This document shows, piece by piece, positions 39,618 through 63,661 of a stretch of 64,000 nt of DNA. The DNA is taken from the NCBI RefSeq assembly GCF_001856665.1, contig NZ_CP017781.1:2513501-2577500 (forward strand), in the 5' to 3' direction. A model generated the notes under the pieces. It was not told the origin of the DNA and did no database searches. It saw only the letters and a program-made list of their open reading frames with translations. The number at the start of each line of letters is the position of its first letter. Positions within the stretch are counted from its first letter, which is position 1. The stretch is from Rhodobacter xanthinilyticus (GTDB taxonomy: Bacteria > Pseudomonadota > Alphaproteobacteria > Rhodobacterales > Rhodobacteraceae). The position numbers and the translations under genes were made by a program.

Positions 39618-39797
39618 CTGGCGCAACCTCGGGTCTGGGTCGCCAGAATGTTAGCAACCGAAACGTTAACAAGGCGCCCAAGAAATCCGACCGCATTTTA
39701 ACGGTCGGGACATTTTGTCGCAGATTTCCCGCTTTTTCTGAAGAATCTGCGCCCGTCGCCCCCTCCGCCGGCAAAATGTTCACCAACGATCTTTTTG

Positions 39798-39828
39798 TTG
39801 ACATCGGTGCACATTTTCCGGTTGATAC
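39798..39828 (+). promoter_or_regulatory. Candidate sigma-70-type promoter of the flavoenzyme gene
   Basis: TTGACA at 39798-39803, then an 18-base spacer and TTGATA at 39822-39827, 24 bases before the ATG. The 39627-39851 gap is noticeably AT-rich for this genome, consistent with a regulatory region; no palindrome was seen. Confidence 0.4.
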
Positions 39829-39851
39829 CCCCATCAGCCAGGGAGTGCCCG

Positions 39852-41894
39852 ATGTCCACCGATCCCCTTCTCCAGCCCTACCAGCTCAAACACCTGCGGC
39901 TGCGCAACCGCATCATGACCACCAGCCACGAACCCGCCTACCCCGAGGACGGCATGCCCAAGGCGCGCTACGCCGCCTATCATGCCGAGCGCGCCAAGGC
40001 CGGGGTGGCGCTGGCGATGACCGCGGGCTCGGCGGCGGTCTCGAAAGACAGCCCGCCGGTCTTCAACAATATCCTCGCCTACAAGGACGAGGTCGTGCCC
40101 CATATCCGCCGCCTCACCGATGCCTGCCACGAGCACGGCTGCGCGGTGATGATCCAGCTCACCCATCTCGGCCGGCGCACCACCTGGAACAAGGGCGCCT
40201 GGCTGCCCTCGGTCTCCTCCTCGCGCCACCGCGAGCCCGCGCACAAGGCCTTCCCCAAGCTCGCCGAGGATTGGGATATCGCGCGCATCATCACCGATTT
40301 CGCCGATGCGACCGAGCGGATGCAGGCCGGCGGCATGGACGGGATCGAGTTGCAGGTCTATGGCCACCTGCTCGACCAGTTCTGGTCGCCCCTGACCAAT
40401 GACCTCGAGGGCCCCTATGGCGGCCAGACGCTCGAGAGCCGGATGCAACTGCTGATGGATGTGCTCGGCGGCATCCGCAAACGGGTCGGCCCGGAGTTCA
40501 TCGTCGGGCTGCGCTACACCGCCGACGAGGCCGAGGCCGGCGGCATCACCCCCGCCGAGGGGATCGAGATCTCCCGCCGCCTCGCCGCGACCGGCATGGT
40601 CGATTTCCTCAACGTGATCCGCGGGCGCATCCACACCGACCCGGCGATGACCGATGTGATCCCGGTGCAGGGGATGAAAAACGCCCCCCATCTCGATTTT
40701 GCCGGCGCCGTGAAGGCCGCGACCGGGATGCCGACCTTCCATGCCGCGAAGATCCCCGATGTGGCCACCGCGCGCCATGCGGTCGCGGCGGGGCTGCTCG
40801 ACATGGTCGGCATGACCCGCGCGCATATGGCCGACCCGCATATCGTGCGCAAGATCATCGAGGGGCGCGAGCATGACATCCGCCCCTGTGTCGGCGCGAC
40901 CTACTGTCTCGACCGGATCTATGCCGCGGGCGAGGCGCTGTGCATCCACAACCCCGCCACCGGGCGCGAGCTGACCATGCCCCATGAGATCGCCCCGGCC
41001 GAGACCCGCAAGAAGGTGGTGATCGTCGGCGCCGGCCCCGCCGGGCTCGAGGCCGCCCGCGTCGCCGCCGAGCGCGGCCATGACGTGACCGTGTTCGAGG
41101 CCCAGCCCGACCCGGGCGGTCAGGTCCGCCTCACCGCGCTCTCCGAACGGCGCCGCGAGATGATCTCGATCATCGACTGGCGGATGGCGCAATGCGCCGC
41201 GCGCGATGTCGAATTCCGCTTCAACACCTGGGCGGAGGTGGCCGATGTGACCGCGCTCGCCCCCGATGTGGTGATCGTGGCGACCGGCGGGCTGCCCAAT
41301 CTCACCCTCTTCGAGGGCAAGGAGCCCGGCCATGTGATCAGCGCCTGGGATCTGCTTTCGGGCGATGTCAAACCCGGGCAGGAGGTGCTGATCTATGACG
41401 AGAGCGGCGATCACCCGGGGCTGATGGCGGCCGAGCTTGCCGCGCGGGCGGGCGCGCGCGTCGAGGTGATGACCCCCGACCGCACCTTCGCCCCCGATAT
41501 CATGGCGATGAACCTCGTGCCCTACATGCGCGCGCTGCAAGACAAGGACGTGACCTTCACCGTCACCCGCCGCCTCAAGGATGTGCGCAAGGAGGGCAAC
41601 CGGCTGACGGCGGTGATCGGCACCGATTACAGCGCCCATACCCGCGAGCAAAGCTATGACCAGATCGTTGTCAACTATGGCACGATGCCGCTCGACGAGC
41701 TCTATTTCGCGCTCAAGCCGCTCTCCTCGAACGGCGGCGCGGTGGATTACGACGCGCTGATCGCGGGCGCGCCGCAACGGCTGATCCGCGAACCCGAGGG
41801 CGCCTTCCAGCTGTTCCGGATCGGCGATGCGGTGAGCGCACGCAACACCCATGCCGCGATCTACGATGCGCTGCGGCTGATGAAGGACATCTGA
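39852..41894 (+). CDS. N-methylproline demethylase-like NADH:flavin oxidoreductase
   Basis: 680 residues of the trimethylamine-dehydrogenase/2,4-dienoyl-CoA-reductase family. Residues 1-375 form the FMN barrel (LKHLRLRNRIMTTSHEPAYP, MIQLTHLGRR, HLLDQFWSPLTNDLEGPYGG, DMVGMTRAHMADPHIVRKI). After it come the iron-sulfur segment RPCVGATYCLDRIY...ALCIHNPATG and a C-terminal NAD/FAD-binding half (VVIVGAGPAGLEAARVAAERG). The pattern best matches the StcD group that demethylates N-methylproline during stachydrine breakdown; dimethylglycine demethylase subunits are relatives. In the Fe-S motif one of the four usual Cys is Ala. The gene stands alone between a kinase operon and the polyketide locus. Confidence 0.82.
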   Translation: MSTDPLLQPYQLKHLRLRNRIMTTSHEPAYPEDGMPKARYAAYHAERAKAGVALAMTAGSAAVSKDSPPVFNNILAYKDEVVPHIRRLTDACHEHGCAVMIQLTHLGRRTTWNKGAWLPSVSSSRHREPAHKAFPKLAEDWDIARIITDFADATERMQAGGMDGIELQVYGHLLDQFWSPLTNDLEGPYGGQTLESRMQLLMDVLGGIRKRVGPEFIVGLRYTADEAEAGGITPAEGIEISRRLAATGMVDFLNVIRGRIHTDPAMTDVIPVQGMKNAPHLDFAGAVKAATGMPTFHAAKIPDVATARHAVAAGLLDMVGMTRAHMADPHIVRKIIEGREHDIRPCVGATYCLDRIYAAGEALCIHNPATGRELTMPHEIAPAETRKKVVIVGAGPAGLEAARVAAERGHDVTVFEAQPDPGGQVRLTALSERRREMISIIDWRMAQCAARDVEFRFNTWAEVADVTALAPDVVIVATGGLPNLTLFEGKEPGHVISAWDLLSGDVKPGQEVLIYDESGDHPGLMAAELAARAGARVEVMTPDRTFAPDIMAMNLVPYMRALQDKDVTFTVTRRLKDVRKEGNRLTAVIGTDYSAHTREQSYDQIVVNYGTMPLDELYFALKPLSSNGGAVDYDALIAGAPQRLIREPEGAFQLFRIGDAVSARNTHAAIYDALRLMKDI

Positions 41895-42077: not shown

Positions 42078-43415
42078 GTGGCCAACGCCACCTTGACAGG
42101 CAATGCAGCCAATAACGCCGCGACGGTCACGAACGCGACGAACGGCTCCGGCGTCCCCTCGCAAAACGGCAGCAGCGTCACCGTCACCACCTCGAACGCG
42201 ACGCTGAGCGGCTCAGGCCATTTCTACGATGTCAACTTCCTCGGCGGCGCCGATACGCTCGTGTCGTGGAACATGCCCTGGGTGAACCCCGAAAGCGGTG
42301 ACAAGCTGGGCTTCGACAATATCTCGATGGGCACCGGCAACGATGTCGTCGAGCTGCACCGCTCGGCCTTCTACGACACGCTCGACATGGGCGACGGCGA
42401 CGACACGCTCGTGCTCGACAATTCGGGCGGGCGCAATGTCGTCATGGGCGCGGGCAACGATGTCACGCAAGTCAACATGACCCAGGCGAGCGCCGCCTCC
42501 GAGGAGGAGCTCGCCCAGAAGGTCGGTCAGGCGCCGATCAGCCTCGACGGCGGCACCGGGCTCGACACGCTCGACCTCGCCGGCGACTGGACGCTGACCC
42601 TGACCTCGGGCAGCTTCACCCTCGACACCAACCACGACGGCATCGGCGATCAGGTGACCAACGTGCTGCGCGCCGATCAATACGGCGATGTGCTGGGCAT
42701 GCCGACGCTGCTCTCGGGCACGGTGCAATGGGGCGACATCCTCACCCTCTCGGGCGGCGATACGGTGGTCGCGCAGGCCACCTTCTCGAATTTCGAGGCC
42801 CTGAACGCGGTCTGTTTCACCCCCGGCACCCTGATCGAGACCCCCGCCGGCCCGCGCCCGGTCGAGGCCCTGCGCCGCGGCGATCTCGTCTCGACCCGCG
42901 CAGGCGCCCGCCCGATCCGCTGGATCGGCCGGCGCCGGCTCGACCTGATCGATCTGATGGCCAACCCCAAGCTGATGCCGATCCTCGTGCCGCGCGGCGC
43001 CTTTGGCGACGGGCTGCCGCGGCGCGATCTGCATGTCTCGCCCCAGCACCGGGTCGTGGTGCGCTCGAAGATCGCCGAGCGGATGTTCGGCGCGCGCGAG
43101 GTGCTGGTCGCGGTCAAACAGCTCGTCGGCACCGCCGGCATCGAGGTCGATGGCGAGCTCAGCACCGTCACCTATTACCATTTCATGCTCGACGACCACG
43201 CCCTCGTCATCGCCGACGGGATCGAGGCCGAAACCCTCTACCCCGGCCCGCAGGCGCTGAGCTTCCTCTCCGAGGACGCGCGCGCCGAGATTTCCACGCT
43301 GTTCCCCGAGCTCGAGGCGGGCGCCGCGAGCCTCGCGCTGCCCTGCCTGAAGGGGCGCGACGCCCGCGCCCTCGCCGCGCGCCACGCCCGCTCGGGCCAA
43401 CCCCTCTGGTCGTGA
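42078..43415 (+). CDS. Hint-domain protein with RTX-like N-terminal part
   Basis: 445 residues from a GTG start. Residues 1-245 are Asn/Thr/Asp-rich with several Gly-Asp nonapeptide-like units (MGTGNDVVE, MGDGDDTLV, MGAGNDVTQ, GGTGLDTLDL), typical of calcium-binding secreted proteins. Cys246 opens a Hint_2 domain: CFTPGTLIETPAGPRPVEAL, RPIRWIGRRRL, LHVSPQHRVVV and the late HALVIADGIEAETLYPG. There is no classical Sec signal, so type I secretion is plausible, but no exporter is nearby. Hint domains can cleave at their first Cys; the role of this Rhodobacterales subgroup is not known. It precedes the GNAT and polyketide synthase genes. Confidence 0.85.
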   Translation: MANATLTGNAANNAATVTNATNGSGVPSQNGSSVTVTTSNATLSGSGHFYDVNFLGGADTLVSWNMPWVNPESGDKLGFDNISMGTGNDVVELHRSAFYDTLDMGDGDDTLVLDNSGGRNVVMGAGNDVTQVNMTQASAASEEELAQKVGQAPISLDGGTGLDTLDLAGDWTLTLTSGSFTLDTNHDGIGDQVTNVLRADQYGDVLGMPTLLSGTVQWGDILTLSGGDTVVAQATFSNFEALNAVCFTPGTLIETPAGPRPVEALRRGDLVSTRAGARPIRWIGRRRLDLIDLMANPKLMPILVPRGAFGDGLPRRDLHVSPQHRVVVRSKIAERMFGAREVLVAVKQLVGTAGIEVDGELSTVTYYHFMLDDHALVIADGIEAETLYPGPQALSFLSEDARAEISTLFPELEAGAASLALPCLKGRDARALAARHARSGQPLWS

Positions 43416-43487
43416 GCACCTCCATCCGCTAGGCTCGCGTCAAAGTTGTGAGATGGCGCGGCCACGACCCAAGAACAGGAGCCTTCC

Positions 43488-43994
43488 GTGCAAAGCAGCC
43501 TCCCCGCCGAGGAACGGCGCAAAGTGATGATCAAGCTCGGCGAGGAGGTCGCCGATGTGCCCCAGATCCTGCCGCTCGTCCACCAGATGCACCGCGAAAG
43601 CCTGTTTGCCGACCTGCCTTTCGACGAGCCGCAGTTCGAGCAGATCATCGGCTTCATCCGCGACAACCCGGGCTTCAACGGCGCGCTCTATGTCGAATAT
43701 GACGGCGAGCCGGTGGCCTTTGCCTATTACGTCTTCCGCCCCTTCATGGGCAGCCGCAAGAGCTGGATCACGGTGATGCACACGCTCTACCTGCGCGCCG
43801 ATATCCGCTCGACCCCGGTCGGCGGCTACATCTGGGAGCGGATCTTGCTGGCGGTGCGCAGCTGGTCGGCGCCGCGCGGCGCGCGCGGGATCATGTTCAA
43901 CGTCACCTCGGGGATCGCGGTGGAAGAGACCGATACCGTGCTGCGCGCGGGCGGCGCCACCCATCTGGGCGGCAATTATTTCCTGCGGATCTGA
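43488..43994 (+). CDS. GNAT-family acyltransferase
   Basis: 168 residues, GTG start after AGGAG. A GNAT fold is supported by ILPLVHQMHRESLFADLPFD at the N-terminus, ALYVEYDGEPVAFAYYVFRP (beta strands), the VMHTLYLRADIRSTPVGGYI acetyl-CoA-site helix start and GIMFNVTSGIAVEETDTVLR near the end. The usual Q/R-x-x-G-x-G/A loop is modified to RSTPVGG. The acceptor is unknown. It lies 20 bases upstream of the polyketide synthase on the same strand, so it is probably co-transcribed and could acylate the product or a starter. Confidence 0.78.
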   Translation: MQSSLPAEERRKVMIKLGEEVADVPQILPLVHQMHRESLFADLPFDEPQFEQIIGFIRDNPGFNGALYVEYDGEPVAFAYYVFRPFMGSRKSWITVMHTLYLRADIRSTPVGGYIWERILLAVRSWSAPRGARGIMFNVTSGIAVEETDTVLRAGGATHLGGNYFLRI

Positions 43995-44014
43995 CGGGGG
44001 CGCGAGACGACACC

Positions 44015-47000
44015 ATGACCGCGCGCGACGAGACCGCCCCGCTGATCACCGGCATCGGCCTGCGCCTGCCCGGCGCGCGCGGGCTGGCCGGCGCCTGGCG
44101 GGTGCTGGCCGAGGGGCGCTGCACGGTGGGCGAGGTCATCGCGCGCAGCTTCGACCCCGCGCTCTACCTCGACCCAGTGCCCGGCCGGCGCGGCAAGACC
44201 GTGACCTTCGCCGCGGGCCAGATCGAGGATCTGTGGCGCTTCGACCCCGGCGCCTTCGGCATCAGCCCGCGCGAGGCCGCCGAAATGGACCCCCAACAGC
44301 GCCAGATGCTGATGGTGGTGCGCGAGGCGGTCGATGATGCGGGGCTCGACATGGCCGCGCTGGCGGGGCCGCGCACGGGGGTGTTCATCGGCGCCTCGCT
44401 CGTCGAGAATCTCTCGCTCTTCTACAATGACCCGGCGCGCGGCGGCTCCACCTTCACGCTGGGCAACACGCTCTCGATCCTCGCCAACCGGGTCTCGGCC
44501 TGTTTTGATTTCCGCGGCCCGAGCCAGGTGATCGACACCGCCTGCTCCTCGGCGCTGACCGCGCTCGACACGGCGGCGGGCGCGCTGCGGCGGGGCGAGC
44601 TCGATATCGCGGTGGTCGGCGGCGTCCATGCGATCCGCACCCCGGGCGGCTTCGTCGGCTTCTCGCAGGCGCGGATGCTGAGCCCGACCGGCACCTGCCA
44701 CGCCTTCGATGCCGCGGCCGACGGCTATGTGCGCTCCGAGGCGGCGATCGCGGTGGTGCTGATGCGCCCCGAGATCGCCGCGCGCCTCGCGCCGCGGCTG
44801 CGCGCGCGGCTCCTGGCCACCGGCGTCAACACCGATGGCGCCAGCGCCCCGCTCGCCGTGCCCTCCGCCCCCCGCCAACAGGCGCTGATCGAGGCGGTCC
44901 TCGAGGCCTCCGGGCGCGACCCGGAGGATTTCGCCTTCTACGAGGCCCATGGCACCGGCACCGCGGTGGGCGACCCGGCCGAGGCGCGCTCGCTCGGCGC
45001 GGCGCTGGCCACGCTGCGCCGCGCGCCGCTCAGGATCGGCTCGGCCAAGACCAATTTCGGCCATGCCGAGCCCGCCGCCGGGCTTGTCGGGCTCGTCAAG
45101 GCGGTGCTCGCGCTTGAGCGCGGCGCGCTGCCCGCCTCGCTGCATTTCACCACCCCCAACCCCGCGATCGATTTCGAGGCGCTCAATCTCTCGGTCAATA
45201 CCGCGCTCCGCCCGCTTGCGCCGGGCGCGCGGCTGGCGGGGGTCAATGCCTTCGGCTTTGGCGGCACGAATGCGGTCGCGCTGATCGAGAGCCTCGCGCC
45301 CGCGCCCCGCCCCGCCGCCCGTCCGGCCACCGCCCGCCCCGCGGCCGCGCCGCTCGCCCCACCGGCGCCCGAACCCGCCCCCTGGCTGCTCCTCTCGGCC
45401 GCCTCCGCGCCAAGCCTCGCCCGCCTCGCCGCGGCCTGGGCCGAGCGCCTCGCGCCGCTCTCCCCCGCCGAGCGCGCGCCGCTCGCCGCCGCCGCCGCAC
45501 GGCGCTCCGAATTTGCCCATCGCCTCGCCGTGCCGCTCGCAACCGCGCCCGCCGCGCTCGAAGATCACGCCGCCGGCCGCCCCACGCCCGCGCTCCTCGG
45601 CAAGGCCGCCTTTGCCTGCGCGCGCACCGTCTTCGCCTTCTCCGGCAATGGCGCGCAAAGCGCCGGGATGGGCCGCGCCGCCTATGCCGCCGACCCGGCC
45701 TTCCGCGCCGCCTTCGACGCGATCGCCGCCGCCTTCGCCGCCGAGGGCGTGGCCGATCTCGCCCGCCTGCTCGACGCCCCCGATCTGCAGACCCGCCTCG
45801 CAAGCCCCCTCGTCGCGCAGCCGCTGCTCGTCGCCTGCCAGATCGCTCAGGCCGAGAGCCTGATCGCGGCGGGCCTCGCCCCCGAGGCGGTGGTCGGCCA
45901 TTCGGTGGGCGAACTGAGCGCGCTCCATGTCGCGGGCGTGCTCAGCCGCGCCGGGCTTGCCCGCGTCGTCGCCAGCCGCTCGCGCGCCTTCGAGGCGCTG
46001 CGCGGCACCGGCACGATGGCCACCCTCGCGCTCGGCGAGGCCGAGGCGCGGCGCGCGCTGGCCGGGCTCGGCGATGACCGGCTGGTGATCGCCACCGTGA
46101 ACTCGCCGCGCTCGGTGACCGTCTCGGGCCCCGCCGAGGCGATCGAACGGCTCGCCCGCGTCACCGTCGGCGGGCGCCCGATCGCGCTGGTGCGGCTCGG
46201 CCTCGAAGTGCCCTACCACAGCCCCGCGCTCGAGCCGCTGCGCGCGCGCTTCCTCGAGGATCTCGCCGGGCTCGCCTTCGCCCCCGCGCGCCTGCCCGTC
46301 GCCGGGGCCGCGGTCGGGCGGATGCTGCGCCCGGGCGAGGCCGATGCCGATTATCTGTGGAAAAACACCCGCGACCCGGTGCGCTTTGCCGATGCGGTGG
46401 CGGCGCTCGCGGCCGAGGGGCCGGTGCAGGCGGTGGAAATCTCGCCCCGCCCGATCCTCGGGCGCGCGCTGCGCGACATCGCCCAGCTCGGCGGCCTGCC
46501 GGTGGCGCATTTCGCGCCCTCCCCGTCCACGCCAGCCGAGCCCCCCGCCGCGACGGCGGCCTCCCTCGGCGCCGCGACGCCCGCCTCCCCACCCGGCGCG
46601 GTGGTGGCGCGCGCCTGGGTCGCCGGCCTCGGCATCGACCGCGCGCGCCTCGCCGGGCGCCTCGATCTGGCCCCGGGCGCGCCCCCGCCGGAGCTGCCCG
46701 ATTACCCCTGGGAGCTCGCCGATCATTACCCGCCGCTCTCGGCCGATGCGCTCGACAGCTGGGGCGAGAGCGGCCCGCGCGGCCTCGCCGGGCGCCGCCC
46801 CGACCGCGAGCTGCCGGTCTGGACCACCGACATCACCCCCACCGCCCCCGCCTGGCTCGCCGATCACCGGCTCGGCGCGCAGCAGGTTCTGCCCGCCGCC
46901 GCGCTGGCCGAGATTGCGCTCGCCGCGGCGGCCGAGCTCTGGCCCGAGAGCGCGCTGCGGCTCGAGGGGTTCGACCTGCTCCACAAGGCCGAGGTCGCGG

Positions 47001-50000
47001 GCGAGGGGCTGCGGCTGCGCACCCGGATCGAGCCGCAAAGCGGCGCGCTGAGCCTCGAGATGCGCCCGCGGCTGAGCCAGACCGACTGGATCTTGCTCGC
47101 CCGCGGCACCCTGTCGCGCGCCGCGAGCCCGCCGCCGGCGCCCCCTCGCCGCCCGCGCGCTCAGACCGAAACCGGCGTCGAGACCGGCGCGCTCTACGCC
47201 GGGCTCGCGGCGCGTGGGCTCGCCTATGGCCCCGCCTTCCAGCGCCTCGCGCGGGTCTCGCTGCACGGCCGGACGGAGATCACCGGCGCCCTCGCCGCCG
47301 CGCCCGAGGGGGCGCGGTTCACCCTCGACCCGACCGCGCTCGACGCCGCCTTCCATGCGCTGGCCGCGCTCGTCGAGGCGCGCGGCGGGGCGCTTGGCGG
47401 GGCGTTTGGCAAGCCCGAGGGCCTCGCGCGGGCGCTCGCGGCGGGGGCCGCGCTGATCCCGGTGCGGATCGGGCGGCTGACGCTGTGGCGCCCGGGCGCG
47501 GCGCCCGCGCGGCTGCGGCTCAAGATCACCCGGCTGCGGCGGCGCGGGGTCGAGGCCGATCTGTGGCTCGACGATGACGCCGGCGCGCCGATCGCCCGGC
47601 TCGAGGCGGTCGACTTCGCGCTGGCGCAGATCACCGCCCCCGCGATCGCGCCCAGCCGCTGGGAGGAGCGCGAGATCCGCCTGCGCGCCCCCGGCGCGCC
47701 GCGCGCCCTGCCGCGCGGCTGGGCGCGCCCGGCCACGGCGCTCGCGCGGCTCGGCCTTGCGCCCCGCCCCGCCGCCCGGGGGCCCGCCGAGACCGCCTTT
47801 GCGGGGCTTCGCGCCGCGCTCGAGGCCGGGGCGGACCCGGGCCCCGCGCTCGCCGATCTGCTCGCCACCGCTCCCGATCTCGCCGATGACGCGCGCCTCG
47901 CGCTTGCGGCGTATCGCGGCGCGCTCTTGCCCGAGGTCGCGCGGCGGGCGCTGACCACGCGGCAGGGCTGGGCGCTCGCCGAGCGGCTGCTCGATGACCT
48001 TTGCGCGCGCGGCCGCCCGCTCGAGCGCTGCGCGGTGCTGCTCATCGGGCTGCCGCCCGACGCGCTCCTTGCGCGGCTGCTGAGCGACCCGCGGATCGAT
48101 GCGCTGCACCTGACCCACCCCGAGCCCGAGGCCCGGGCGGCGCTGCGCCGCGCCCTGCCGCCGCCACTCGCGGCGCTGGTGATCGACGCGCCGCCGCGCG
48201 GGGCGGTGGATCTGTGCCTGCGGGTCTGCGCGCCGCCCCTCGCCGCGCCGCCCCGCGCCACGCTCACCCTCGCGATCACCGCTCCGGGCGGCGACGGGCC
48301 GGCCGAGACCGCGCTCCATGACCTCTCGGGCCCGCTGCCCCTCGCCGTTGAGGCCCAGATCGCCCCCGCCGCCGAGGCCGCCCCCCCGCCCTTGCCCCTG
48401 CCCTTGCCGGAGCTGCGCCTTTACGGCGCCGCGCCCGGGCCGCTGCCCGCCGGGCTGACCTTGAGCGACAGCCCCGCCGCGCGCGCGCTGATCCTGTGCC
48501 GCTTCGGCCCCGGCGACAGCCTCACCGACCGCCTCGCCGAGATGTTGATGACGCTGCGCCGCGCCGCGCTCGAGGGGCTCGACGCGCTCACCATCGTGGC
48601 GCTGGAGGAGGCCCCGACCGCGCGCTTCGAGGCCCTGACGCGCGGCCTTGCCGCCGCCGCCGCGACGCGCACCAACGAGGCGCCGGGCGCCGAAACCCGG
48701 CTGATCGCGGTGGCCGCACAGGGCGCGCCGGACTGGCCCGCGCTCTTTGCGCTCAGCGCCGAGGAGCCGGTCGTGCGCTGCACCGCGGCGGGGCTGCGCG
48801 GCGCCCGCGTGCTGCCCTGCCTCGCCGCCGCCGCGCCGCCCGCGCCGGCCCTGCGGCTCGAGGAGGGCGGGCCGGGCGGGCTCGCCTCGCTGCGCTGGCG
48901 CGCGCACAAGCGGCGCAAACCGGGCGTCGGCGAGGTCGAGATCGCGGTCGCGGCGACGGGGCTGAACTTCCGCGATGCGATGCTCGCGCGCGGGCTCTTG
49001 CCGGAGCGGCTGCTCGAGGGCGGGGCCTCGCGCGCCGGGCTCGGGATGGAATGCGCGGGCCGGGTGCTGCGCGCGGGGCCGGGCACCGCGCTCAGGCCCG
49101 GAACCTGGGTCGCGGGCTTCGCCGCCGAGGCCTTCGCCAGCCATCTGACGCTGCCCGAGGCGGCGCTCATCACGCTGCCCGAGGGGCTCGCGCCCAGCGC
49201 CGGCGCCGGCCTTCCGGTGGCTTTCGTGACCGCCTGGGAGGCGCTGGTGCGGGTTGCGCGGCTTGCGCCGGGGGACAGGGTGCTGATCCACGGCGGCGCG
49301 GGCGGGCTCGGCCTCGCCGCGATCCAGCTCGCGCGGGCGCAAGGGGCGCGCGTCATCGCCTCCGCCTCGAGCCCGGAGCGGCGCGCGCTGGCCCGCGCCG
49401 CGGGCGCCGAGGTAGCGATCGACAGCCGCGACCCGGAGTTCGCCACCGCGGTGCGCGCCGCCACCGACGGGCGCGGCGTCGATATCGTGCTCAACAGCCT
49501 CGCGGGCGCGATGATGCAGGCCTCGGTCGCCTGCCTGGCCCCCTTCGGCCGCTTCATCGAGCTCGGCAAACGCGATTTTCTGGAGGCCACGCGGCTTGAT
49601 CTGACGCCCTTTGCCGCCGGGCTGAGCTACCACGCCTTCGACCTCGACCGCCGCCTCGCGGTCGACCCGGAGGGCGTCGGCGAGAGCCTGCGCGCGGTGC
49701 GCGCGGCGCTGGCGGAGGGGCGGCTCCGACCGCTGCCCGTCACGCCCTGGCCCGGCGCCGATCTCGCAGGCGCGATCCGCCACATGCTCGGCGCCCATCA
49801 CGTCGGCAAGATCGTGATCACACCCCCCGCCCCGCGCCGCCCGCCCCGCGCCGCCGCGCGCCCGCCCGCGCTCCGCGATGACTGGGTGATCCTTGGCGGC
49901 TCCGGCGGGCTCGGGCTGGCGCTCGCGCGCGCGCTGGTCGGGGCGGGCGTGACGCGGGTGCATCTCGTCTCGCGCAGCGGCAAGCCCGGCCTTGCCGCGG

Positions 50001-51001
50001 GCGCCGACGGGCTTTGGGCGCAAACCGCCCCGCAGGTCAGCCTCCATGCCGCCGATGCCCGCAACCCGGCCGCGCTCGGCGCGCTGTTCGCGCGGATCGA
50101 GGCGGGCGGCGGGCGGCTTGGCGGGGTGATCCATGCCGCGATGGTGCTCCATGACCGGCTGATCCGCGACCTCGACCCGGTCGAGACCCGCGCGGTGCTC
50201 GCCGCCAAGATCGAGGTGGCCGAGGCGCTCGCGGCCGCGCTCGCCCCCCCCGGCCGGGCGCCCGATCAGCTGCTCTTTCTCTCCTCGATCGCCGCCTGGA
50301 TCGGCAACCCCGGTCAGGCGGGCTATGCCGCCGCGAATGGCGCGCTCGAGGGGCTGGCGGCGGCGCAGCGGAGCGCGGGGCGGCGCGCGCGGGTGCTCAG
50401 CCTCGGGGCGATCGGCGGCGCGGGGGTGCTGGCGCGCAACGCCGCCCTCGCGGCGCGGCTCGCGCGCCAGGAGGGGCTGACGCTTCTGCCGGTGGCGCAG
50501 GCGGTGGCCGAGGTGATGGCCGCGCTCGGCGCGCCCACCGCCGCCACCGACCCCGCGCCCGACCCCGCGCCCGCGGATTACCTCTTCGCCCCGGTCGATT
50601 GGCCGGGCCTCGCGCCGCTCCTGCCCGCGCTCGCGCAGGCGCGCTTTGCGCAGGTGATCGCCGAGGGCGCGGCCGCGCGCCGCCCCGCGGGCGATCTCGC
50701 CGAGGAGATCCGCGCGCTCGATTGGCGCGCCGCGCTCGCGCGCGTCGAGGCCGAGCTTGCCGAGATCCTCTGTGCGATCTTGCGCCTGCCCCCCGCCGAT
50801 TTCGACCCGCAACGCCCGCTCGGCCGCTACGGCATCGACTCGCTGATGGCGATGGAGCTGCGCCTCGATGTCGAGCGCCGGCTCGGGCTCTCGCTCGGCG
50901 CGCTGCCGATCTCGGAGGCCACCACCCCCGCCCGCCTCGCCGCCGCGCTGCTCGAAGAGCTGCGCCGCGCCCCGCAGACCGCCCCGGAGCCCCCCGCATG
51001 A
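44015..51001 (+). CDS. Single-module reducing type I polyketide synthase (KS-AT-DH-ER-KR-ACP)
   Basis: 2328 residues. KS: Cys177 in DTACSSALTAL, then EAHGTGTAVGDPAEA and KTNFGHAEPAAGLVGL. AT: Ser630 in GHSVGELSALH, later LEVPYHSPAL. DH: His951 in DHRLGAQQVLP and Asp1110 in LDAAFHAL. Residues about 1200-1620 carry a degenerate methyltransferase-like and structural KR part. ER: GGAGGLGLAAIQLARAQGAR from about 1760. KR: GGSGGLGLALARAL from 1961, Tyr2104 in GYAAANGAL. ACP: Ser2276 in GIDSLMAMEL. No loading domain and no thioesterase or reductase end, so it probably works iteratively and hands its saturated chain to another enzyme. All key residues are intact. The stop overlaps the glycosyltransferase start. 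Confidence 0.93.
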   Translation: MTARDETAPLITGIGLRLPGARGLAGAWRVLAEGRCTVGEVIARSFDPALYLDPVPGRRGKTVTFAAGQIEDLWRFDPGAFGISPREAAEMDPQQRQMLMVVREAVDDAGLDMAALAGPRTGVFIGASLVENLSLFYNDPARGGSTFTLGNTLSILANRVSACFDFRGPSQVIDTACSSALTALDTAAGALRRGELDIAVVGGVHAIRTPGGFVGFSQARMLSPTGTCHAFDAAADGYVRSEAAIAVVLMRPEIAARLAPRLRARLLATGVNTDGASAPLAVPSAPRQQALIEAVLEASGRDPEDFAFYEAHGTGTAVGDPAEARSLGAALATLRRAPLRIGSAKTNFGHAEPAAGLVGLVKAVLALERGALPASLHFTTPNPAIDFEALNLSVNTALRPLAPGARLAGVNAFGFGGTNAVALIESLAPAPRPAARPATARPAAAPLAPPAPEPAPWLLLSAASAPSLARLAAAWAERLAPLSPAERAPLAAAAARRSEFAHRLAVPLATAPAALEDHAAGRPTPALLGKAAFACARTVFAFSGNGAQSAGMGRAAYAADPAFRAAFDAIAAAFAAEGVADLARLLDAPDLQTRLASPLVAQPLLVACQIAQAESLIAAGLAPEAVVGHSVGELSALHVAGVLSRAGLARVVASRSRAFEALRGTGTMATLALGEAEARRALAGLGDDRLVIATVNSPRSVTVSGPAEAIERLARVTVGGRPIALVRLGLEVPYHSPALEPLRARFLEDLAGLAFAPARLPVAGAAVGRMLRPGEADADYLWKNTRDPVRFADAVAALAAEGPVQAVEISPRPILGRALRDIAQLGGLPVAHFAPSPSTPAEPPAATAASLGAATPASPPGAVVARAWVAGLGIDRARLAGRLDLAPGAPPPELPDYPWELADHYPPLSADALDSWGESGPRGLAGRRPDRELPVWTTDITPTAPAWLADHRLGAQQVLPAAALAEIALAAAAELWPESALRLEGFDLLHKAEVAGEGLRLRTRIEPQSGALSLEMRPRLSQTDWILLARGTLSRAASPPPAPPRRPRAQTETGVETGALYAGLAARGLAYGPAFQRLARVSLHGRTEITGALAAAPEGARFTLDPTALDAAFHALAALVEARGGALGGAFGKPEGLARALAAGAALIPVRIGRLTLWRPGAAPARLRLKITRLRRRGVEADLWLDDDAGAPIARLEAVDFALAQITAPAIAPSRWEEREIRLRAPGAPRALPRGWARPATALARLGLAPRPAARGPAETAFAGLRAALEAGADPGPALADLLATAPDLADDARLALAAYRGALLPEVARRALTTRQGWALAERLLDDLCARGRPLERCAVLLIGLPPDALLARLLSDPRIDALHLTHPEPEARAALRRALPPPLAALVIDAPPRGAVDLCLRVCAPPLAAPPRATLTLAITAPGGDGPAETALHDLSGPLPLAVEAQIAPAAEAAPPPLPLPLPELRLYGAAPGPLPAGLTLSDSPAARALILCRFGPGDSLTDRLAEMLMTLRRAALEGLDALTIVALEEAPTARFEALTRGLAAAAATRTNEAPGAETRLIAVAAQGAPDWPALFALSAEEPVVRCTAAGLRGARVLPCLAAAAPPAPALRLEEGGPGGLASLRWRAHKRRKPGVGEVEIAVAATGLNFRDAMLARGLLPERLLEGGASRAGLGMECAGRVLRAGPGTALRPGTWVAGFAAEAFASHLTLPEAALITLPEGLAPSAGAGLPVAFVTAWEALVRVARLAPGDRVLIHGGAGGLGLAAIQLARAQGARVIASASSPERRALARAAGAEVAIDSRDPEFATAVRAATDGRGVDIVLNSLAGAMMQASVACLAPFGRFIELGKRDFLEATRLDLTPFAAGLSYHAFDLDRRLAVDPEGVGESLRAVRAALAEGRLRPLPVTPWPGADLAGAIRHMLGAHHVGKIVITPPAPRRPPRAAARPPALRDDWVILGGSGGLGLALARALVGAGVTRVHLVSRSGKPGLAAGADGLWAQTAPQVSLHAADARNPAALGALFARIEAGGGRLGGVIHAAMVLHDRLIRDLDPVETRAVLAAKIEVAEALAAALAPPGRAPDQLLFLSSIAAWIGNPGQAGYAAANGALEGLAAAQRSAGRRARVLSLGAIGGAGVLARNAALAARLARQEGLTLLPVAQAVAEVMAALGAPTAATDPAPDPAPADYLFAPVDWPGLAPLLPALAQARFAQVIAEGAAARRPAGDLAEEIRALDWRAALARVEAELAEILCAILRLPPADFDPQRPLGRYGIDSLMAMELRLDVERRLGLSLGALPISEATTPARLAAALLEELRRAPQTAPEPPA

Positions 51002-52227
51002 CCGCCCCGCTGCGCATCCTCTTTCTGCACCGCAACCAGCCCGCGCAATTCGAGTTTTTCGCGCGCTGGCTGGCGCAGAACGGCTGGCAGGTGACCTTCG
51101 CCCATGTCGGCCCGGCGCCCTCCGACACCACCGACGCCGACGGCATCCGCACGCTGCGCTTCCCCGCCCCGCCCGATGAGCGGCGCGCCGACGATTACCG
51201 CTATGCGCTCGATTACGCCGCCCAGACCGCGCTCGGCGCCACCCAGCTCTTCACCCAGCTGCGCGAGCTCGAGGGCTACCACCCCGATCTCGTGCTCGCC
51301 CATGTCGGCTGGGGCATCGGCTTGACCGTGCGGCAAATCTGGCCCGCGACGCGCTACATCGCCTATCACGAATGGTATTACACCGATGTCGACTGGGACC
51401 GCAGCAAGCGCGAACGCCCGATGACGCCTGAGGCTTTGCTGACCAACCGCCTGAGAAACCTGCCGATTTCGGCCGAGTTCGACAGCGCCGACCGCAATTG
51501 GTGCCCGACCGGCTTTCAGGCGAGCCGCTTCCCCCCCGCGCTGCGCGCCCGCCTCGAGATCGTGCCCGACGGGGTCGATTGCGGCTTCCACCGCCCCGAC
51601 CCGGAGGCGCGGATCGACTTCGACTGGCTGCGCCTGCCCGGCCGCACGAAGCTCTTGACCTATGCCACCCGCGGCCTGGAACCGCTGCGCGGCTTTCCGC
51701 AATTCATGCGCGCGGTGGCGCTCTTGCAAAAGCGGCGCGCAGATTTCGAGACCCTGGTCGTCGCGCAGGACAGCGTCTCCTACGGGCCGCGGCTCGCCGA
51801 GGACGACGGCTGGGGCAAGCGCGCGCTCAAGGCGCTCGATCTCGACCGCGGGCGACTGCACATGCACGGGCTCAAGCCGCGCGCCGAATATCTGCGCGTG
51901 CTGCAAGCCTCGAGCGCACATGTCTATTTCACCGAACCCTTCGTGACCTCCTGGTCGCTGCTTGAGGCGATGGCGGCGGGCTGTCTGGTGATCGGCTCGC
52001 ATACCGCGCCGGTGCGCGAGGTGATCGAGGACATGCAGACCGGGATCCTCGTCGACATGGACGAGAGCGACGAGGTGGCCGAGATGATCGACTGGGTCTT
52101 CGAGCACCCCGCCGAGGTGGCCGCGATCCGCGCAAATGCGCGCGCCCATGTGCTCGAGCGGTTCGAGGCGGGCAAGGTCTTTGCGCGCAAGGCGGCCTAT
52201 CTGCGCGCGCTCGTCGCGGGCGGCTGA
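50998..52227 (+). CDS. Family-4 glycosyltransferase coupled to the polyketide synthase
   Basis: 409 residues; the ATG overlaps the synthase stop (ATGA). The N-terminal domain matches the Glyco_trans_4_3 type: RILFLHRNQPAQFEFFARWL, DLVLAHVGWGIGLTVRQIWP and IAYHEWYYTDVDWD. The C-terminal donor domain has IVPDGVDCGFH, LLTYATRGLEPLRGFPQFM and the Glu-rich nucleotide-sugar site EPFVTSWSLLEAMAAGCLV. It is soluble, with no membrane helix. Tight coupling to the synthase suggests it glycosylates the polyketide or a lipid made from it. Sugar donor and acceptor cannot be read from sequence. Confidence 0.88.
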   Translation: MTAPLRILFLHRNQPAQFEFFARWLAQNGWQVTFAHVGPAPSDTTDADGIRTLRFPAPPDERRADDYRYALDYAAQTALGATQLFTQLRELEGYHPDLVLAHVGWGIGLTVRQIWPATRYIAYHEWYYTDVDWDRSKRERPMTPEALLTNRLRNLPISAEFDSADRNWCPTGFQASRFPPALRARLEIVPDGVDCGFHRPDPEARIDFDWLRLPGRTKLLTYATRGLEPLRGFPQFMRAVALLQKRRADFETLVVAQDSVSYGPRLAEDDGWGKRALKALDLDRGRLHMHGLKPRAEYLRVLQASSAHVYFTEPFVTSWSLLEAMAAGCLVIGSHTAPVREVIEDMQTGILVDMDESDEVAEMIDWVFEHPAEVAAIRANARAHVLERFEAGKVFARKAAYLRALVAGG

Positions 52228-52231
52228 GCGC

Positions 52232-52468
52232 TCAGCGCTCGGCCTCGGCGATCAGCCCGCGCACCCAGCGCGCCGCCGCCCAGGCCGCCGGCACCCCGAG
52301 CGGCACCGAGACCGCCACCGCCCAGAGCGGCGCGAGCGCGGGCAGGCCGAGCCATTGCCCCATCAGCCCGAGCATGAAGAGATTGATCGCCACCGCCGCC
52401 GCGCAAAACGGGTAAAGCAGCGCCGCGAGCCGCCCGAGCCGCGGCAGATCAGTGGCTGGTGCCGTCAT
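52232..52468 (-). CDS. Small two-helix membrane protein downstream of nirN
   Basis: 78 residues: a short N-terminus (MTAPATDLPRLGRLAALLYP) and two hydrophobic helices (CAAAVAINLFMLGLMGQWLG and LAPLWAVAVSVPLGVPAAWA) before a basic end. Its ATG lies inside the last 20 bases of nirN, so it is the final gene of the nir operon. I do not recognise the family. A membrane role in heme d1 or cytochrome assembly is possible from context only. It is convergent with the glycosyltransferase gene, 4 bases away, with no visible terminator. Confidence 0.7.
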   Translation of the reverse strand: MTAPATDLPRLGRLAALLYPFCAAAVAINLFMLGLMGQWLGLPALAPLWAVAVSVPLGVPAAWAAARWVRGLIAEAER

Positions 52469-54086
52469 CGAAGGTGATCTTGTTCCAGACATTGTATTTC
52501 CCGATCGGTTTGCGCATCGGCAGGCGCTTGACCTCCTCGAAGGTCTGCGCGTCATAGATGATCACCGCGCCCTCGTCCTCCATCAGCGAGGTGAAGACAT
52601 AGCGCCCGTCGCGGGTGAATTCGGCATGGGCAAAGAGCTTGCCGGGCTCGGGCACCAGACGGCGCACGATCTCGAGGCTCTGCTTGTCGATGATCTGCAT
52701 CTCATCCTTGTGCGGGCCGAAGAACACATCCGCCCAGACATAGGGCGAGGCCTCGTGGCTGCGCAGGAAGAACCCCGGCCCGTCCATCGCGATGGTCTGC
52801 ACCAGATGCCAGTCGCTCATGTCGATGACCGAGATCACGCCTTCTTTCAGATGCGGCGTCGCCATCACCCGGTGCCCGTCGCGCATCCAGGAGATCCCCG
52901 AACCCAGATGCGGCATCCCCGGCAAGGGCAGCTCGGCGATCTTGCGCCCGACATCGAGGTTGATCACCTCGCCCTTGGTGCCCTCACGGTTGGTGCCGAT
53001 CAGGTCGCGGTAATCGGGCGAGAAGAAGAAATCGTCGAGCGGCTCGTCGATCGCGATCCGCCGGCGCGCGAAGAGCCCCTTTTCGGCGCCGAGGCTCTCC
53101 TCCATCGAGGCCTCGTAGCTGTGCACGAAGCCGTCGTGGAACGGCCCGCCCTCGGGGTCGGTGGTCACCTCCCAGATCTCCGGCGCATCCTTCAGCGCGA
53201 GCACGAAGCTCTGCCGCTCGGGCGCCTGATAGACCGCCGAGACGCGGCTCGGGCGGCCGTCGCGCGCCACCACCTCGAGCACCTTGACCACGCTCAGATC
53301 CTCGGTCGACAGGATCGTGAGCGTCTGCGGCAGGTAATTGGCCACCGCGAGCCACTTGCCATCGGCGCTCATCGCGATGTTGCGGCTGTTCAGCCCGGCG
53401 CGGATCTGGCCCACCACCTGCAACGACCAGATATCGTATTTCTGCACCCAGCCATCGCGCGACATGACAAAGACGAACCGCCCGTCGGGCGAGAACTTCG
53501 GCCCGCCATGCACGGCAAAAGGCGTGGCAAACCGGTCGAGCACCTCGAAACTATCCCCATCGAGCACCGAGATATGGTGATCGCCCGCCTCGACGACGAG
53601 GGTGATGTTCATCGGATCGCCGGTGAAGACCGGCGCGGGCGCAGGGCGATACTCGGCACTCATCTCGCGGCTCTGCGCGGCCTGCTCGAGGCTCCAGCGC
53701 GGGGTCTCGGTGAGCGGCGTCGCGATATAGGCCGCCACCGCGGCGATCTCCTCAGGGCTGAGCTGGCCGCCAAACCCCGCCATCTGCGTGGCCGGCCGGC
53801 CCGCAGCGATCACCTGCTCGAGCGCGGGGCCCATCATCCGCCCGAGCGTCTCGGGGATCAGCGCGGGGCCGGTGCCGCCCAGCCGCGTCTCGGCGTGGCA
53901 AGACGCGCAATTCTCGGCAAAGAGCGCCGCGCCATCGGCGCCCGCCGCCCCTTCAGCCGCCCCCTGCGCCGCCGCGCCCCCGCCCATCCCCAGCATCAGC
54001 GCCAGCACGACCGGCAGAATATGCGTATTTTTTCCAAGAAGAAGCGCCGGGGTTTCTTCTTGGCCCAAATACGCACGGCGCGACAT
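52449..54086 (-). CDS. nirN: NirN, dihydro-heme d1 dehydrogenase (cd1-type cytochrome)
   Basis: About 545 residues. It has an N-terminal signal (ILPVVLALMLGMGGGAAAQG), a cytochrome c domain with CASCH near residue 60 and a heme d1 beta-propeller (FAVHGGPKFSPDGRFVFVMS, SRNIAMSADGKWLAVANYLP, VWADVFFGPHKDEM, LFAHAEFTRDGRYVFTSLME). NirN catalyses the last step of heme d1 synthesis, oxidising a propionate to an acrylate. It is shorter and less similar to nitrite reductase than the NirS of this cluster. The start is uncertain: ATG 54086 is used, but a palindromic repeat lies within the first 25 codons and ATG 54134 would overlap nirJ. Confidence 0.88.
   Translation of the reverse strand: MSRRAYLGQEETPALLLGKNTHILPVVLALMLGMGGGAAAQGAAEGAAGADGAALFAENCASCHAETRLGGTGPALIPETLGRMMGPALEQVIAAGRPATQMAGFGGQLSPEEIAAVAAYIATPLTETPRWSLEQAAQSREMSAEYRPAPAPVFTGDPMNITLVVEAGDHHISVLDGDSFEVLDRFATPFAVHGGPKFSPDGRFVFVMSRDGWVQKYDIWSLQVVGQIRAGLNSRNIAMSADGKWLAVANYLPQTLTILSTEDLSVVKVLEVVARDGRPSRVSAVYQAPERQSFVLALKDAPEIWEVTTDPEGGPFHDGFVHSYEASMEESLGAEKGLFARRRIAIDEPLDDFFFSPDYRDLIGTNREGTKGEVINLDVGRKIAELPLPGMPHLGSGISWMRDGHRVMATPHLKEGVISVIDMSDWHLVQTIAMDGPGFFLRSHEASPYVWADVFFGPHKDEMQIIDKQSLEIVRRLVPEPGKLFAHAEFTRDGRYVFTSLMEDEGAVIIYDAQTFEEVKRLPMRKPIGKYNVWNKITFDDGTSH
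54022..54075. repeat. Palindromic repeat at the 5' end of nirN
   Basis: Facing arms TGCGTATTTTTTCCAAGAAG at 54022-54041 (plus AA) and TTCTTCTTGGCCCAAATACG at 54054-54073 (plus CA) around a 10-base GC loop. It would fold into a stem of about 21 bp with few mismatches, lying in the nirJ-nirN junction and within the N-terminal codons assigned to nirN. A single arm occurs at 24174-24198. Confidence 0.8.
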
Positions 54087-54108
54087 CGGCCGCAGGCGCG
54101 GCGCAAGA

Positions 54109-55320
54109 TCAGAAGAAACGATGTGCGGGATCATGGCTCTTGCCTCGGAACGGAGTGACAGTCAGGCGCGCAGCTTCGGCGTCAAGGCCGATCTCAGTCG
54201 CGCCGAGGTAGCAGGCCGGGTCTTCGGCCCAGGGGTCGCCCGAGACCTGCAGCGCGCGGATCCGGGTATTGCCGCCGCAGACCGCCTGATAGGCGCAGGC
54301 GCCGCAGCGCCCCTTGAGCGGGCGCGGGCGGGTGCGCAGCGTGGCGAGCATCGGGTCGGCGCCGGTCCAGAGCGCGGAAAACGGCGTCTCCTTGACCGAG
54401 CCCACGGTATAATCGGACCAATAGGTATCGGGGTGCACGCGGCCCTGGGGGTCGATATTGGCCACACCCAGCCCCGAGGAATTGCCGCCCCAGGCCTCGA
54501 GATGGGCGCGCACATGGGCCGCCTTCTCGGGGAAATTCCGCTCGACCCAGCGCAGGAAGTAGACCGCATCGGCATCGTTGTTGCCGGTGACGATCTCGAG
54601 GGGCGCATCCTCGGCCACCGCCACCCAGGCGCGGTCGATCAGCTCGTCGAGGGCGCTGCGGGTGCGGGTATGGGCGGTATCCTCGCCGCGGTTCTTGTCG
54701 CCGCGCCCGGCATAGACGAGATGCGACAGGTAGAACTTGTCGACCCCCTCGCGGTCGCACAGATCGAGCATCGCGGGGAGCTGTTCGGCGTTATCCTCGG
54801 TGATGGTGAAGCGCAGCCCCACCTTCACCCCGCGCGCCAAAAGCGCCCGCACCCCGCCCAGCGCCGCGTCGAAGGCGCCATCGAGGCCGCGGAACCAATC
54901 GTTCGTCGCGCCGATCCCGTCGAGCGAGATGCCGACGTAATCAAACCCGAGCCCCGCGATCCGCTCGGCGTTTTCGGCGGTAATCAGCGTGCCGTTGGTC
55001 GAGAGCGCGAGATGGCGGAAGCCGAGCGCCTTGGCCCGCTCCGCCAGCTCGAAGAAATCGAACCGCGAGAGCGGCTCGCCGCCCGACAAGATCAGCGCCG
55101 GGATCCCGAAGGCCTTGAGATCCTCAAGCACGCCCATCGCCTGCTCATGGCTGAGCTCGCCCGGGAACGGCCGGTCCGCCGAGGTCGTGTAGCAATGCCG
55201 GCAGCGCAGGTTGCAGCTGCGCGTGAGGTTCCAGATCACCACTGGTTTCACCGCGCCCGCGCGGCGGCGCACCGGCGTGGGGTGCACCAGCTCGCGCATG
55301 TATTGGCTCAATCGGAACAT
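54109..55320 (-). CDS. nirJ: Heme d1 biosynthesis radical SAM protein NirJ
   Basis: 403 residues. The radical SAM cluster is CNLRCRHC (CxxxCxxC) in [20 protein letters not shown], followed by [17 protein letters not shown] and [11 protein letters not shown]-terminal second Fe-S cluster is suggested by [20 protein letters not shown] and a later DPACY. NirJ removes two propionate side chains from didecarboxysiroheme to set the ring carbonyls of heme d1. It follows nirH by 3 bases. Confidence 0.95.
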
Positions 55321-55323
55321 CTC

Positions 55324-55803
55324 TCAGCCCTCGGCAAGGCGCAGCCCGGTCTTTTTCAGGATGCGCGTGGAATAGAGGATCTCGCAGCCCCGGCAGGCGG
55401 AGCCGAGCAGCGCCGCGATCTCGGCGCGTTTGGCCTCGACCTCGGCGCGGGTCGTGCCATGGATCATGGCGAAGAGGTTGTAGGGCCAGCCCTCGGCGCG
55501 CGGGCGCAGATAGCAATGCGACACGAAATCGAGCGCGCCGACCGCGGCGCCGAGCCGGGTGGCCGCGCCGTCCTCGACATCCCAGACCGACATGCCATTC
55601 GCGACCTGGCCCAGCGCATAATGGTTGGGCGCGAGCGCCACCCGCCGGATCGCGCCCGCGGCCTGCATCGCCGCCATCCGCGCCAGAACCTCCGCCTCGG
55701 GCCGGCCGAGCTGGCGGGCGATCTCGGCATAGGGCTCGGCCACCAGCGGCAGCCCCGCCTGGGTCGCGGCGATGATCTGACGGTCGAGAGGGTCGAGGCT
55801 CAT
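55324..55803 (-). CDS. nirH: Siroheme decarboxylase subunit NirH
   Basis: 159 residues of the AsnC/Lrp-like NirDLGH family: a winged-helix start (LDPLDRQIIAATQAGLPLVA, IARQLGRPEAEVLARMAAMQ) and an AsnC-like C-terminal domain with RRVALAPNHYALGQVANGMS, FVSHCYLRPR and YNLFAMIHG. These proteins decarboxylate siroheme to 12,18-didecarboxysiroheme, and the His residues in the NHY and SHCY positions are family-typical. The start overlaps the nirG stop by 4 bases; a longer frame upstream is inside nirG. It has two closing Cys (ACRGC). Confidence 0.92.
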   Translation of the reverse strand: MSLDPLDRQIIAATQAGLPLVAEPYAEIARQLGRPEAEVLARMAAMQAAGAIRRVALAPNHYALGQVANGMSVWDVEDGAATRLGAAVGALDFVSHCYLRPRAEGWPYNLFAMIHGTTRAEVEAKRAEIAALLGSACRGCEILYSTRILKKTGLRLAEG

Positions 55804-56273
55804 GCAGTCACCCGAAAGCCGATGAAAAACTCCTCGAGTTTCGGGAAACGGAGGACGCACATCCCCGTTTCCCGCTCGATCTCACCCGCCACCTGCTCGA
55901 TACCTTCCGGAGCTACCGCGGCCAGCACGAACCACATGTTCAGCCGGTGAGTGCGTTGATAATTATGCGCAACCTCGGGGTGGGCATTGACCAAAGTCAT
56001 GACCTCCTCGAAACGCGCCTCGGGCACCGCCATCGCGCACAGGCAAAACGCCCCGCCGAGCGCCGCGGCGTCGAAAAACGGCCCGAAGCGGGTGATCGCG
56101 CCGATCTCGCGCAGCCGCGCGATGCGGGCGAGGAGCTCGGGCACCGTGATGCCAAGCGCCGCCGCGGGCGCCGCGAAGGGGGCGGGGCCGATCGCCACCC
56201 CGTCCTGGAGCAGGTTGATCGCGGCGCGGTCGATCGCGTCGAGCGCGCCCTCGGGCAGGACCGCGCGGCTCAT
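55800..56273 (-). CDS. nirG: Siroheme decarboxylase subunit NirG
   Basis: 157 residues, same family as NirH. Winged-helix region LDAIDRAAINLLQDGVAIGP, then ARLREIGAITRFGPFFDAAA, HPEVAHNYQRTHRLNMWFVL (the conserved His-Asn-Tyr) and a C-terminal CVLRFPKLEEFFIGF. It works with NirDL and NirH in heme d1 synthesis. The ATG overlaps the nirDL stop by 4 bases. Confidence 0.92.
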   Translation of the reverse strand: MSRAVLPEGALDAIDRAAINLLQDGVAIGPAPFAAPAAALGITVPELLARIARLREIGAITRFGPFFDAAALGGAFCLCAMAVPEARFEEVMTLVNAHPEVAHNYQRTHRLNMWFVLAAVAPEGIEQVAGEIERETGMCVLRFPKLEEFFIGFRVTA

Positions 56274-57268: not shown

Positions 57269-57270
57269 CT

Positions 57271-59608: not shown

Positions 59609-63661
<4,053 letters not shown>

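What the first reader, a model, noticed from the sequence alone, without database searches (positions are those of the whole stretch)
44015..52227. Compact locus pairing a full reducing PKS with a coupled glycosyltransferase
Seen: one 2328-residue protein carries intact KS, AT, DH, ER, KR and ACP active residues but no loading module and no thioesterase. Its stop overlaps the start of a Glyco_trans_4_3-type transferase. Known: heterocyst-glycolipid and mycobacterial systems pair reducing PKSs with sugar transferases. Inference: this is an iterative synthase making a saturated chain that is glycosylated to a surface or secreted glycolipid, in a lineage where such clusters are rarely described. 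No acyl-AMP ligase, phosphopantetheinyl transferase or exporter is in the window.
Basis: partly seen in the sequence, partly recalled or inferred. Interest (0 to 1): 0.75.

Follow-up and report, generated by a model that had tools for sequence, protein, structure and literature searches.

The report
Capsule-type lipid synthase beside Hint protein
A large enzyme that builds fatty chains, related to those found in bacterial capsule gene clusters, sits in a conserved four-gene operon with a sugar transferase, a small acyltransferase-like protein and a secreted-type protein carrying a Hedgehog/intein-like domain, which suggests that the chain may be attached to that protein.

Summary
In detail: 44015..51001 encodes a 2328-aa KS-AT-DH-ER-KR-ACP synthase without loading module or thioesterase, overlapping a Glyco_trans_4_3 transferase by 4 bases. 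But the unit is larger: a four-gene operon, 42078..52227, of an RTX-like protein with a C-terminal Hint_2 domain, a 168-aa GNAT-fold protein (ORF168), the PKS and the transferase.

The KS-AT tree joins the five system PKSs sampled (100/100) inside the RkpA (capsule lipid) group. The usual neighbours there (RkpG aminotransferase, capsule genes) are absent; Hint, GNAT and transferase stand instead. Hint and ORF168 persist where PKS and transferase decayed (ORF168 slightly shortened in one of two). Two Paracoccus keep Hint, ORF168 and transferase without this PKS. So the transferase cannot depend on the PKS product alone.

Best reading (0.4): a cassette modifying a secreted-type protein; the PKS supplies an acyl chain that ORF168 transfers to the Hint protein, which the transferase glycosylates. 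Anatomy and ancestry are shown; acyl transfer, target and product are inferred. A free glycolipid remains possible.

The parts
42078..43415 (+). Hint_2 protein, 445 aa, GTG start: RTX-like cargo (1-245) plus C-terminal Hint domain with Cys246 and an SPQH block, then a conserved tail
   Evidence: Pfam Hint_2 E 9e-53 at residues 245-390; 71% identical in Thioclava, 45% in Paracoccus; AF2 model poor overall (pLDDT 47), beta-solenoid moderately confident only at about 51-180
42519..42521 (+). Lys148 of the cargo, candidate acylation site (weak evidence)
   Evidence: Only one of 10 Lys-holding columns shared by 8 of 8 PKS-lineage cargoes; 59 of 245 columns are invariant anyway
42810..43247 (+). Hint_2 domain
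   Evidence: Pfam
43488..43994 (+). ORF168, GNAT-fold protein, proposed acyltransferase
44015..51001 (+). Single-module type I PKS, KS-AT-DH-ER-KR-ACP, 2328 aa
44039..45304 (+). KS domain
45629..46483 (+). AT domain
46799..47614 (+). DH domain
48929..49819 (+). ER domain
49886..50413 (+). KR domain
50753..50950 (+). ACP domain
50998..52227 (+). Glyco_trans_4_3 / GT4-type glycosyltransferase, 409 aa, overlaps the PKS stop by 4 bases
   Evidence: 70% identical in Thioclava

Best explanation
A four-gene cassette that modifies a secreted-type protein. The PKS, an RkpA-type synthase that left a capsule locus, iteratively builds a reduced acyl chain on its own ACP. It has no thioesterase and no neighbouring RkpG aminotransferase, so ORF168 (GNAT fold) takes the chain from the ACP and transfers it to an amine, most likely on the co-encoded RTX-like Hint protein. 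The glycosyltransferase adds sugar to the same product, and the Hint domain cleaves itself after export or modification. The result would be a surface-held, lipidated and glycosylated protein. Shown: gene order and spacing, conservation, domain make-up, PKS ancestry, GNAT fold. Inferred: single transcript, acyl transfer by ORF168, its target, the role of the sugar, Hint cleavage, export.
For: Order Hint-ORF168-PKS-(PDF-like)-GT in 7 of 7 loci found with a full-length PKS of this clade (in the Paracoccus MAG L041 only the Hint C-terminus is on the contig; the loci were found through GT and ORF168 searches, and a KS-AT search of plasmids found no further PKS above 46% identity among the 40 rows listed). 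Hint directly upstream of every close ORF168, 11 of 11 loci. Hint and ORF168 remain where PKS and GT decayed, 2 of 2, ORF168 lacking its last few residues in Phaeovulum. The five sampled system PKSs are one group, 100/100, inside the RkpA-type group; RkpG-type aminotransferase lies within the fetched stretch in 10 of 11 nearest outside relatives and capsule genes in 8 of 11, none in this operon. ORF168 is a GNAT fold. 7 of 13 remote ORF168 relatives inspected are followed on the same strand by an ORF of 1000 aa or more within 2.3 kb (RTX repeats in 3 of the 7), against 0 of 19 comparison GT loci (cut-offs chosen after seeing the loci); one locus also has type I secretion and Hint genes. GNAT-fold RtxC enzymes take acyl from acyl-ACP and acylate Lys of RTX proteins (PMC8339906 passages); CdiC lipidates a Lys of the surface protein CdiA (PMC8510554 passages).
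Against: No biochemical evidence. ORF168 has no detectable sequence relation to RtxC/HlyC: no PF02794 hit at E<=1, hhalign probability under 1%. Two Paracoccus loci keep ORF168 without the PKS, so it need not use PKS-made chains. Fuscovulum has Hint and GT without ORF168 in the stretch fetched. Counting RTX repeats alone, remote ORF168 loci (4 of 13) differ little from comparison GT loci (3 of 19). The Lys148 pattern could be chance, as 24% of cargo columns are invariant, and it depends on the alignment. No secretion gene is in the operon, and the AF2 model of the Hint protein is poor.
Confidence: 0.4

Rival explanations
1. One reading: PKS and transferase make a free glycolipid; Hint and GNAT genes only accompany them or help display or finish it (the GNAT may form an amide head group).
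For: PKS and GT overlap in the window; adjacent, or separated by one PDF-like gene, in 7 of 7 loci; PKS and GT lost or cut together in two genomes; GNAT relatives by fold include small-molecule acetyltransferases.
Against: GT kept near Hint but without this PKS in three loci (for Fuscovulum only 25 kb were seen); close ORF168 never found without Hint, 11 of 11.
Confidence: 0.27
2. Hedgehog-like: the Hint thioester on the cargo C-terminus is resolved by a PKS-derived lipid or glycolipid nucleophile, joining lipid to the protein end; ORF168 modifies the lipid.
For: Hedgehog-like layout (cargo, Hint, tail) with conserved Cys and an SPQH block; the Hog domain's Hint part cleaves the precursor with covalent lipid attachment, and bacterial intein-like domains can cleave at their N-terminal end (PMC7765530 passages).
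Against: The genome holds 17 Hint_2 matches and a single PKS, so the family's general chemistry needs no PKS lipid; cleavage was not tested.
Confidence: 0.12
3. The PKS still does the RkpA job: its lipid feeds capsule or LPS export genes elsewhere in the genome, and its position is accidental.
For: RkpA-type ancestry; Capsule_synth matches at C1:2752-2757 kb and elsewhere, one weak and partial in the window itself at about 22.8 kb.
Against: No close RkpG: best own-genome hit 40% over 344 aa at C1:2186.5 kb, more than 300 kb from both the PKS and the 2752-kb capsule genes; conserved linkage with Hint and ORF168 across genera.
Confidence: 0.1
4. Chance neighbourhood or passenger island without joint function.
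For: Patchy: 1 of 17 congeners searched has the Hint ortholog; decay in two genomes; no empty site could be shown.
Against: Same order and strand at 45-83% protein identity in different surroundings on plasmids and a chromosome-sized contig.
Confidence: 0.06

Closest known systems
RkpA/WcbR-type capsule-cluster PKSs (rkp/wcb)
   Same: Same single-module KS-AT-DH-ER-KR-ACP layout in the aligned members; system PKSs lie inside this group with 100/100 support
   Different: RkpG aminotransferase, RkpH reductase and capsule genes are missing from the operon; Hint, GNAT and GT4_3 genes instead
RTX protein plus RtxC/HlyC acyltransferase; CdiA/CdiC
   Same: GNAT-fold protein encoded next to an RTX-like protein; a His (35) kept in 21 of 21 aligned ORF168 members, in the predicted helix 27-37
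   Different: No sequence relation to PF02794; a PKS in the operon; Hint domain on the proposed substrate
Hint_2 / bacterial intein-like and Hedgehog proteins
   Same: Hint_2 match, Cys and SPQH, C-terminal position
   Different: Cleavage not shown; operon with PKS, GNAT and GT
Mycocerosic acid synthase / Pks2
   Same: Best solved-structure match of the PKS by sequence (9d2z, E 1e-189)
   Different: Far below the NCBIfam Pks2 cut-off (747 against 2400 bits)

Membership tests
RkpA/WcbR-type synthase | KS-AT placement in the RkpA-type group | tested here: met
   19-row group 100/100 holds the RkpA-type rows and all 5 system rows (midpoint root, no outgroup); the RkpA label rests on neighbouring rkp-type genes, not on a named RkpA protein
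RkpA/WcbR-type synthase | Linked RkpG aminotransferase and capsule export genes | tested here: not met
   None in the operon by Pfam of the genes; best own-genome RkpG match 40%, elsewhere
Mycobacterial Pks2 equivalog | NCBIfam curated cut-off | tested here: not met
   746.6 of 2400 bits
Heterocyst glycolipid synthase (Hgl) | Clade membership and hgl gene set | not tested
   no Hgl sequence was brought in
GNAT superfamily (ORF168) | GNAT fold | tested here: met
RtxC/HlyC (PF02794) | Profile match | tested here: not met
   no PF02794 at E<=1 for three orthologs; hhalign probability under 1%
RtxC/HlyC (PF02794) | Closest fold match among GNATs | tested here: inconclusive
   no such entry named among the 50 rows shown
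Hint_2 (PF13403) | Curated cut-off and nucleophile Cys | tested here: met
   179 bits against 28.4; Cys246 invariant in five orthologs
Hedgehog-like autoprocessing | Self-cleavage with a lipid nucleophile | not testable with these tools
   needs protein chemistry
Glyco_trans_4_3 (PF12000) | Curated cut-off | tested here: met
   118 bits against 25

The most novel reading that the evidence does not exclude
A dedicated polyketide-driven protein lipidation system: a capsule-type lipid synthase recruited to make an acyl chain that a GNAT-fold enzyme moves from its ACP onto an RTX-like protein with a Hedgehog/intein-type Hint domain, which is also glycosylated.
Probability: 0.3. Interest if true: 0.88.

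Novelty: new variant of a known kind. Interest (0 to 1): 0.62.

Why it matters
If right, it links polyketide synthesis to post-translational modification of a secreted-type protein. In the RTX and CDI systems I saw passages on, the acyl donor is acyl-ACP; here the operon would make its own donor. It would also give a simple setting in which to ask what the many Hint_2 domains of these bacteria do (17 in this genome), and show how an RkpA-type synthase can be re-deployed with a different release partner.

Tried and rejected
The mirror ORF on the minus strand over the PKS (2278 aa) was rejected as a high-GC artefact. Homology of ORF168 to RtxC/HlyC by sequence was tested and not found. The spacing of His35 and Asp105 resembles His37/Asp107 of CdiC (passage), but Asp105 is not kept in the remote relatives, so I do not use it. 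A profile search of ORF168 in PDB sequences gave nothing significant (best E 0.28), and the Hint protein had no PDB sequence match at E<=1. RtxC structures do not appear by name in the rows shown of the fold searches, which proves nothing. Association of this transferase family with Hint in general was tested and not found: 0 of 19 distant GT loci have a hit of my Hint profile within the 12-18 kb fetched (the 19 are the own-genome paralogue and 18 chosen from the top of about 100 strong matches). Synteny of the flanks: in 8 of 8 congener regions fetched only the FMN oxidoreductase was found, so no empty site could be shown. A tblastn of the whole PKS against plasmids at 1e-150 gave no match, probably because of the strict limit, since the KS-AT part then found the Thioclava and Paracoccus copies. 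The AF2 model of the Hint protein is poor and its fold search did not run. The promoter scan gave 0 sites and the terminator scan no more than shuffles. Literature: five searches (listings seen only) showed no paper on a PKS-Hint operon; the library is open-access only.
Full report
What is there. Two more genes precede them on the same strand with gaps of 72 and 20 bases: 42078..43415 (Hint_2 protein, 445 aa) and 43488..43994 (ORF168). The left neighbour is an FMN oxidoreductase-like gene (39795..41894); the right neighbours are cytochrome-D1-domain and heme-d1-type genes on the other strand. Those neighbours do not look related to the unit.

Conservation. Because these were found through GT and ORF168, I also searched plasmids with the KS-AT part: the four named plasmids come first (61-69% identity) and the next listed record has 46%. 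In 3 of 7 (L007, L041, L056) a gene annotated or recognised as peptide-deformylase-like stands between PKS and GT. Identities window to Thioclava: Hint 71, ORF168 83, PKS 56, GT 70 percent; to Paracoccus 75233 45, 58, 48, 55.

Reduced and decayed forms. Paracoccus marcusii and Paracoccus sp. PAMC 22219 have Hint-ORF168-PDF-like-GT without a PKS (in PAMC 22219 the PDF-like gene lies in two frames). At E<=1e-20 their genomes hold only KS domains of 38% identity or less to the window's. Fuscovulum blasticum has Hint-PDF-like-GT without PKS or ORF168 in the 25 kb fetched. In Rhodobacter aestuarii the PKS similarity ends after about 215 residues and the frame runs into GT sequence read out of frame, the GT itself lacking its first half; in Phaeovulum vinaykumarii no PKS is left, the GT is cut and the last residues of ORF168 are lost, while the Hint gene stays open. 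From this I infer that the window is a Rhodobacter.

Ancestry of the PKS. Outside the system the 11 best KS matches in 295 family genomes are 45-57% identical. I fetched these 11 and 4 lower ones. A tblastn hit to an RkpG-type aminotransferase lies in the stretch in 10 of the 11 (in the eleventh, L117, the PKS runs off the contig), and to capsule synthesis or export genes in 8 of 11; the 4 lower ones have no RkpG hit. Shinella, Sinorhizobium meliloti pSymB and Caballeronia records show the rkp-type arrangement of PKS, aminotransferase, SDR and capsule genes; the names RkpG and RkpH are my labels for these, recalled. The window's Hint, ORF168 and GT and the Paracoccus PDF-like protein hit none of these 18 loci at 1e-8. 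The KS-AT tree of 31 rows (midpoint root, no outgroup) joins the five system PKSs that I sampled with 100/100 support and places them inside the RkpA-type group of 19 rows, also 100/100; the closest relative inside is unresolved, and the window row is flagged for unusual letter make-up. Only one of three Thioclava was used. A paper describes wcbR/rkpA as the type I PKS of clusters with genes for synthesis and export of capsular polysaccharides (PMC3908369, passages).

Hint protein. Hint_2 occurs 17 times in this genome, so a Hint gene near another gene is not remarkable by itself; the conserved orthologous linkage is. Eight other Hint_2 matches lay in DNA that I scanned with a pattern for the Cys and SP[x]HR blocks: 6 matched and 2 did not; the remaining 8 were not looked at. 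Two of them carry clear RTX repeats. In the cargo, Lys148 in S-x-x-x-[LI]-x-Q-K is the only one of ten Lys-holding columns shared by 8 of 8 PKS-lineage loci (three of them near-identical Thioclava; L041 has no cargo to compare), and it is replaced in the 2 PKS-less Paracoccus. The MAFFT run had placed a nearby Lys of those two in the same column, so this difference depends on the alignment. As 59 of 245 columns are invariant, it is a lead and not a result. AF2 predicts a helix at 142-149, but with low confidence.

Mechanism. A PKS without thioesterase needs a release partner. In rkp clusters RkpG is the obvious candidate (recalled role). Here the constant partner is a GNAT-fold protein. RtxC enzymes such as HlyC act with acyl-ACP on Lys of RTX proteins, and the ApxIC structure is GNAT-like but lacks CoA-contacting elements (PMC8339906, passages); CdiC lipidates CdiA (PMC8510554, passages). 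That makes acyl transfer from the PKS ACP to the RTX-like Hint protein the reading that explains most of the gene content. It does not explain why ORF168 persists without the PKS, unless it then uses ordinary acyl-ACP or acyl-CoA. One ACPS-family phosphopantetheinyl transferase was found in the genome and no PF02794 protein (46 of 198 family genomes have one).

Verdict. Most likely a new variant built from known parts, of real interest because of the combination.

Noticed in passing
window 52449..61693, minus strand: Cytochrome-D1-domain proteins, radical SAM, AsnC/NirDL-like proteins and a tetrapyrrole methylase: probably a nitrite reductase / heme d1 gene set next to the operon.
   Followed up: no
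window 9019..11283 and 12656..14020: YjbH-type exopolysaccharide protein (Pfam E 1e-192) and a UDP-glucose/GDP-mannose dehydrogenase-family gene.
   Followed up: no
own genome, C1 (e.g. L145, L146): 17 Hint_2 domains in a 3.8 Mb genome, some on RTX/cadherin-like proteins, in places two or three side by side.
   Followed up: partly
L007 14706-15959, L008 10670-12001, L041, L042, L043, L056: A peptide-deformylase-like protein stands next to the GT in several loci; by eye the deformylase metal-binding motifs (recalled) look lost and a long C-terminal part is unassigned.
   Followed up: partly
L075-L087: Remote ORF168 relatives often precede giant repeat proteins, in some loci with a second small ORF of about 180-220 aa in between: possibly a wider acyltransferase-substrate arrangement.
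   Followed up: partly
own genome C2:20632-21312 and C2:129906-130586: Two Capsule_synth matches with identical scores, suggesting a duplicated stretch on contig 2.
   Followed up: no
window 44000..51000: The PKS gene is about 75-80% G+C against about 67-69% for the rest of the operon.
   Followed up: no
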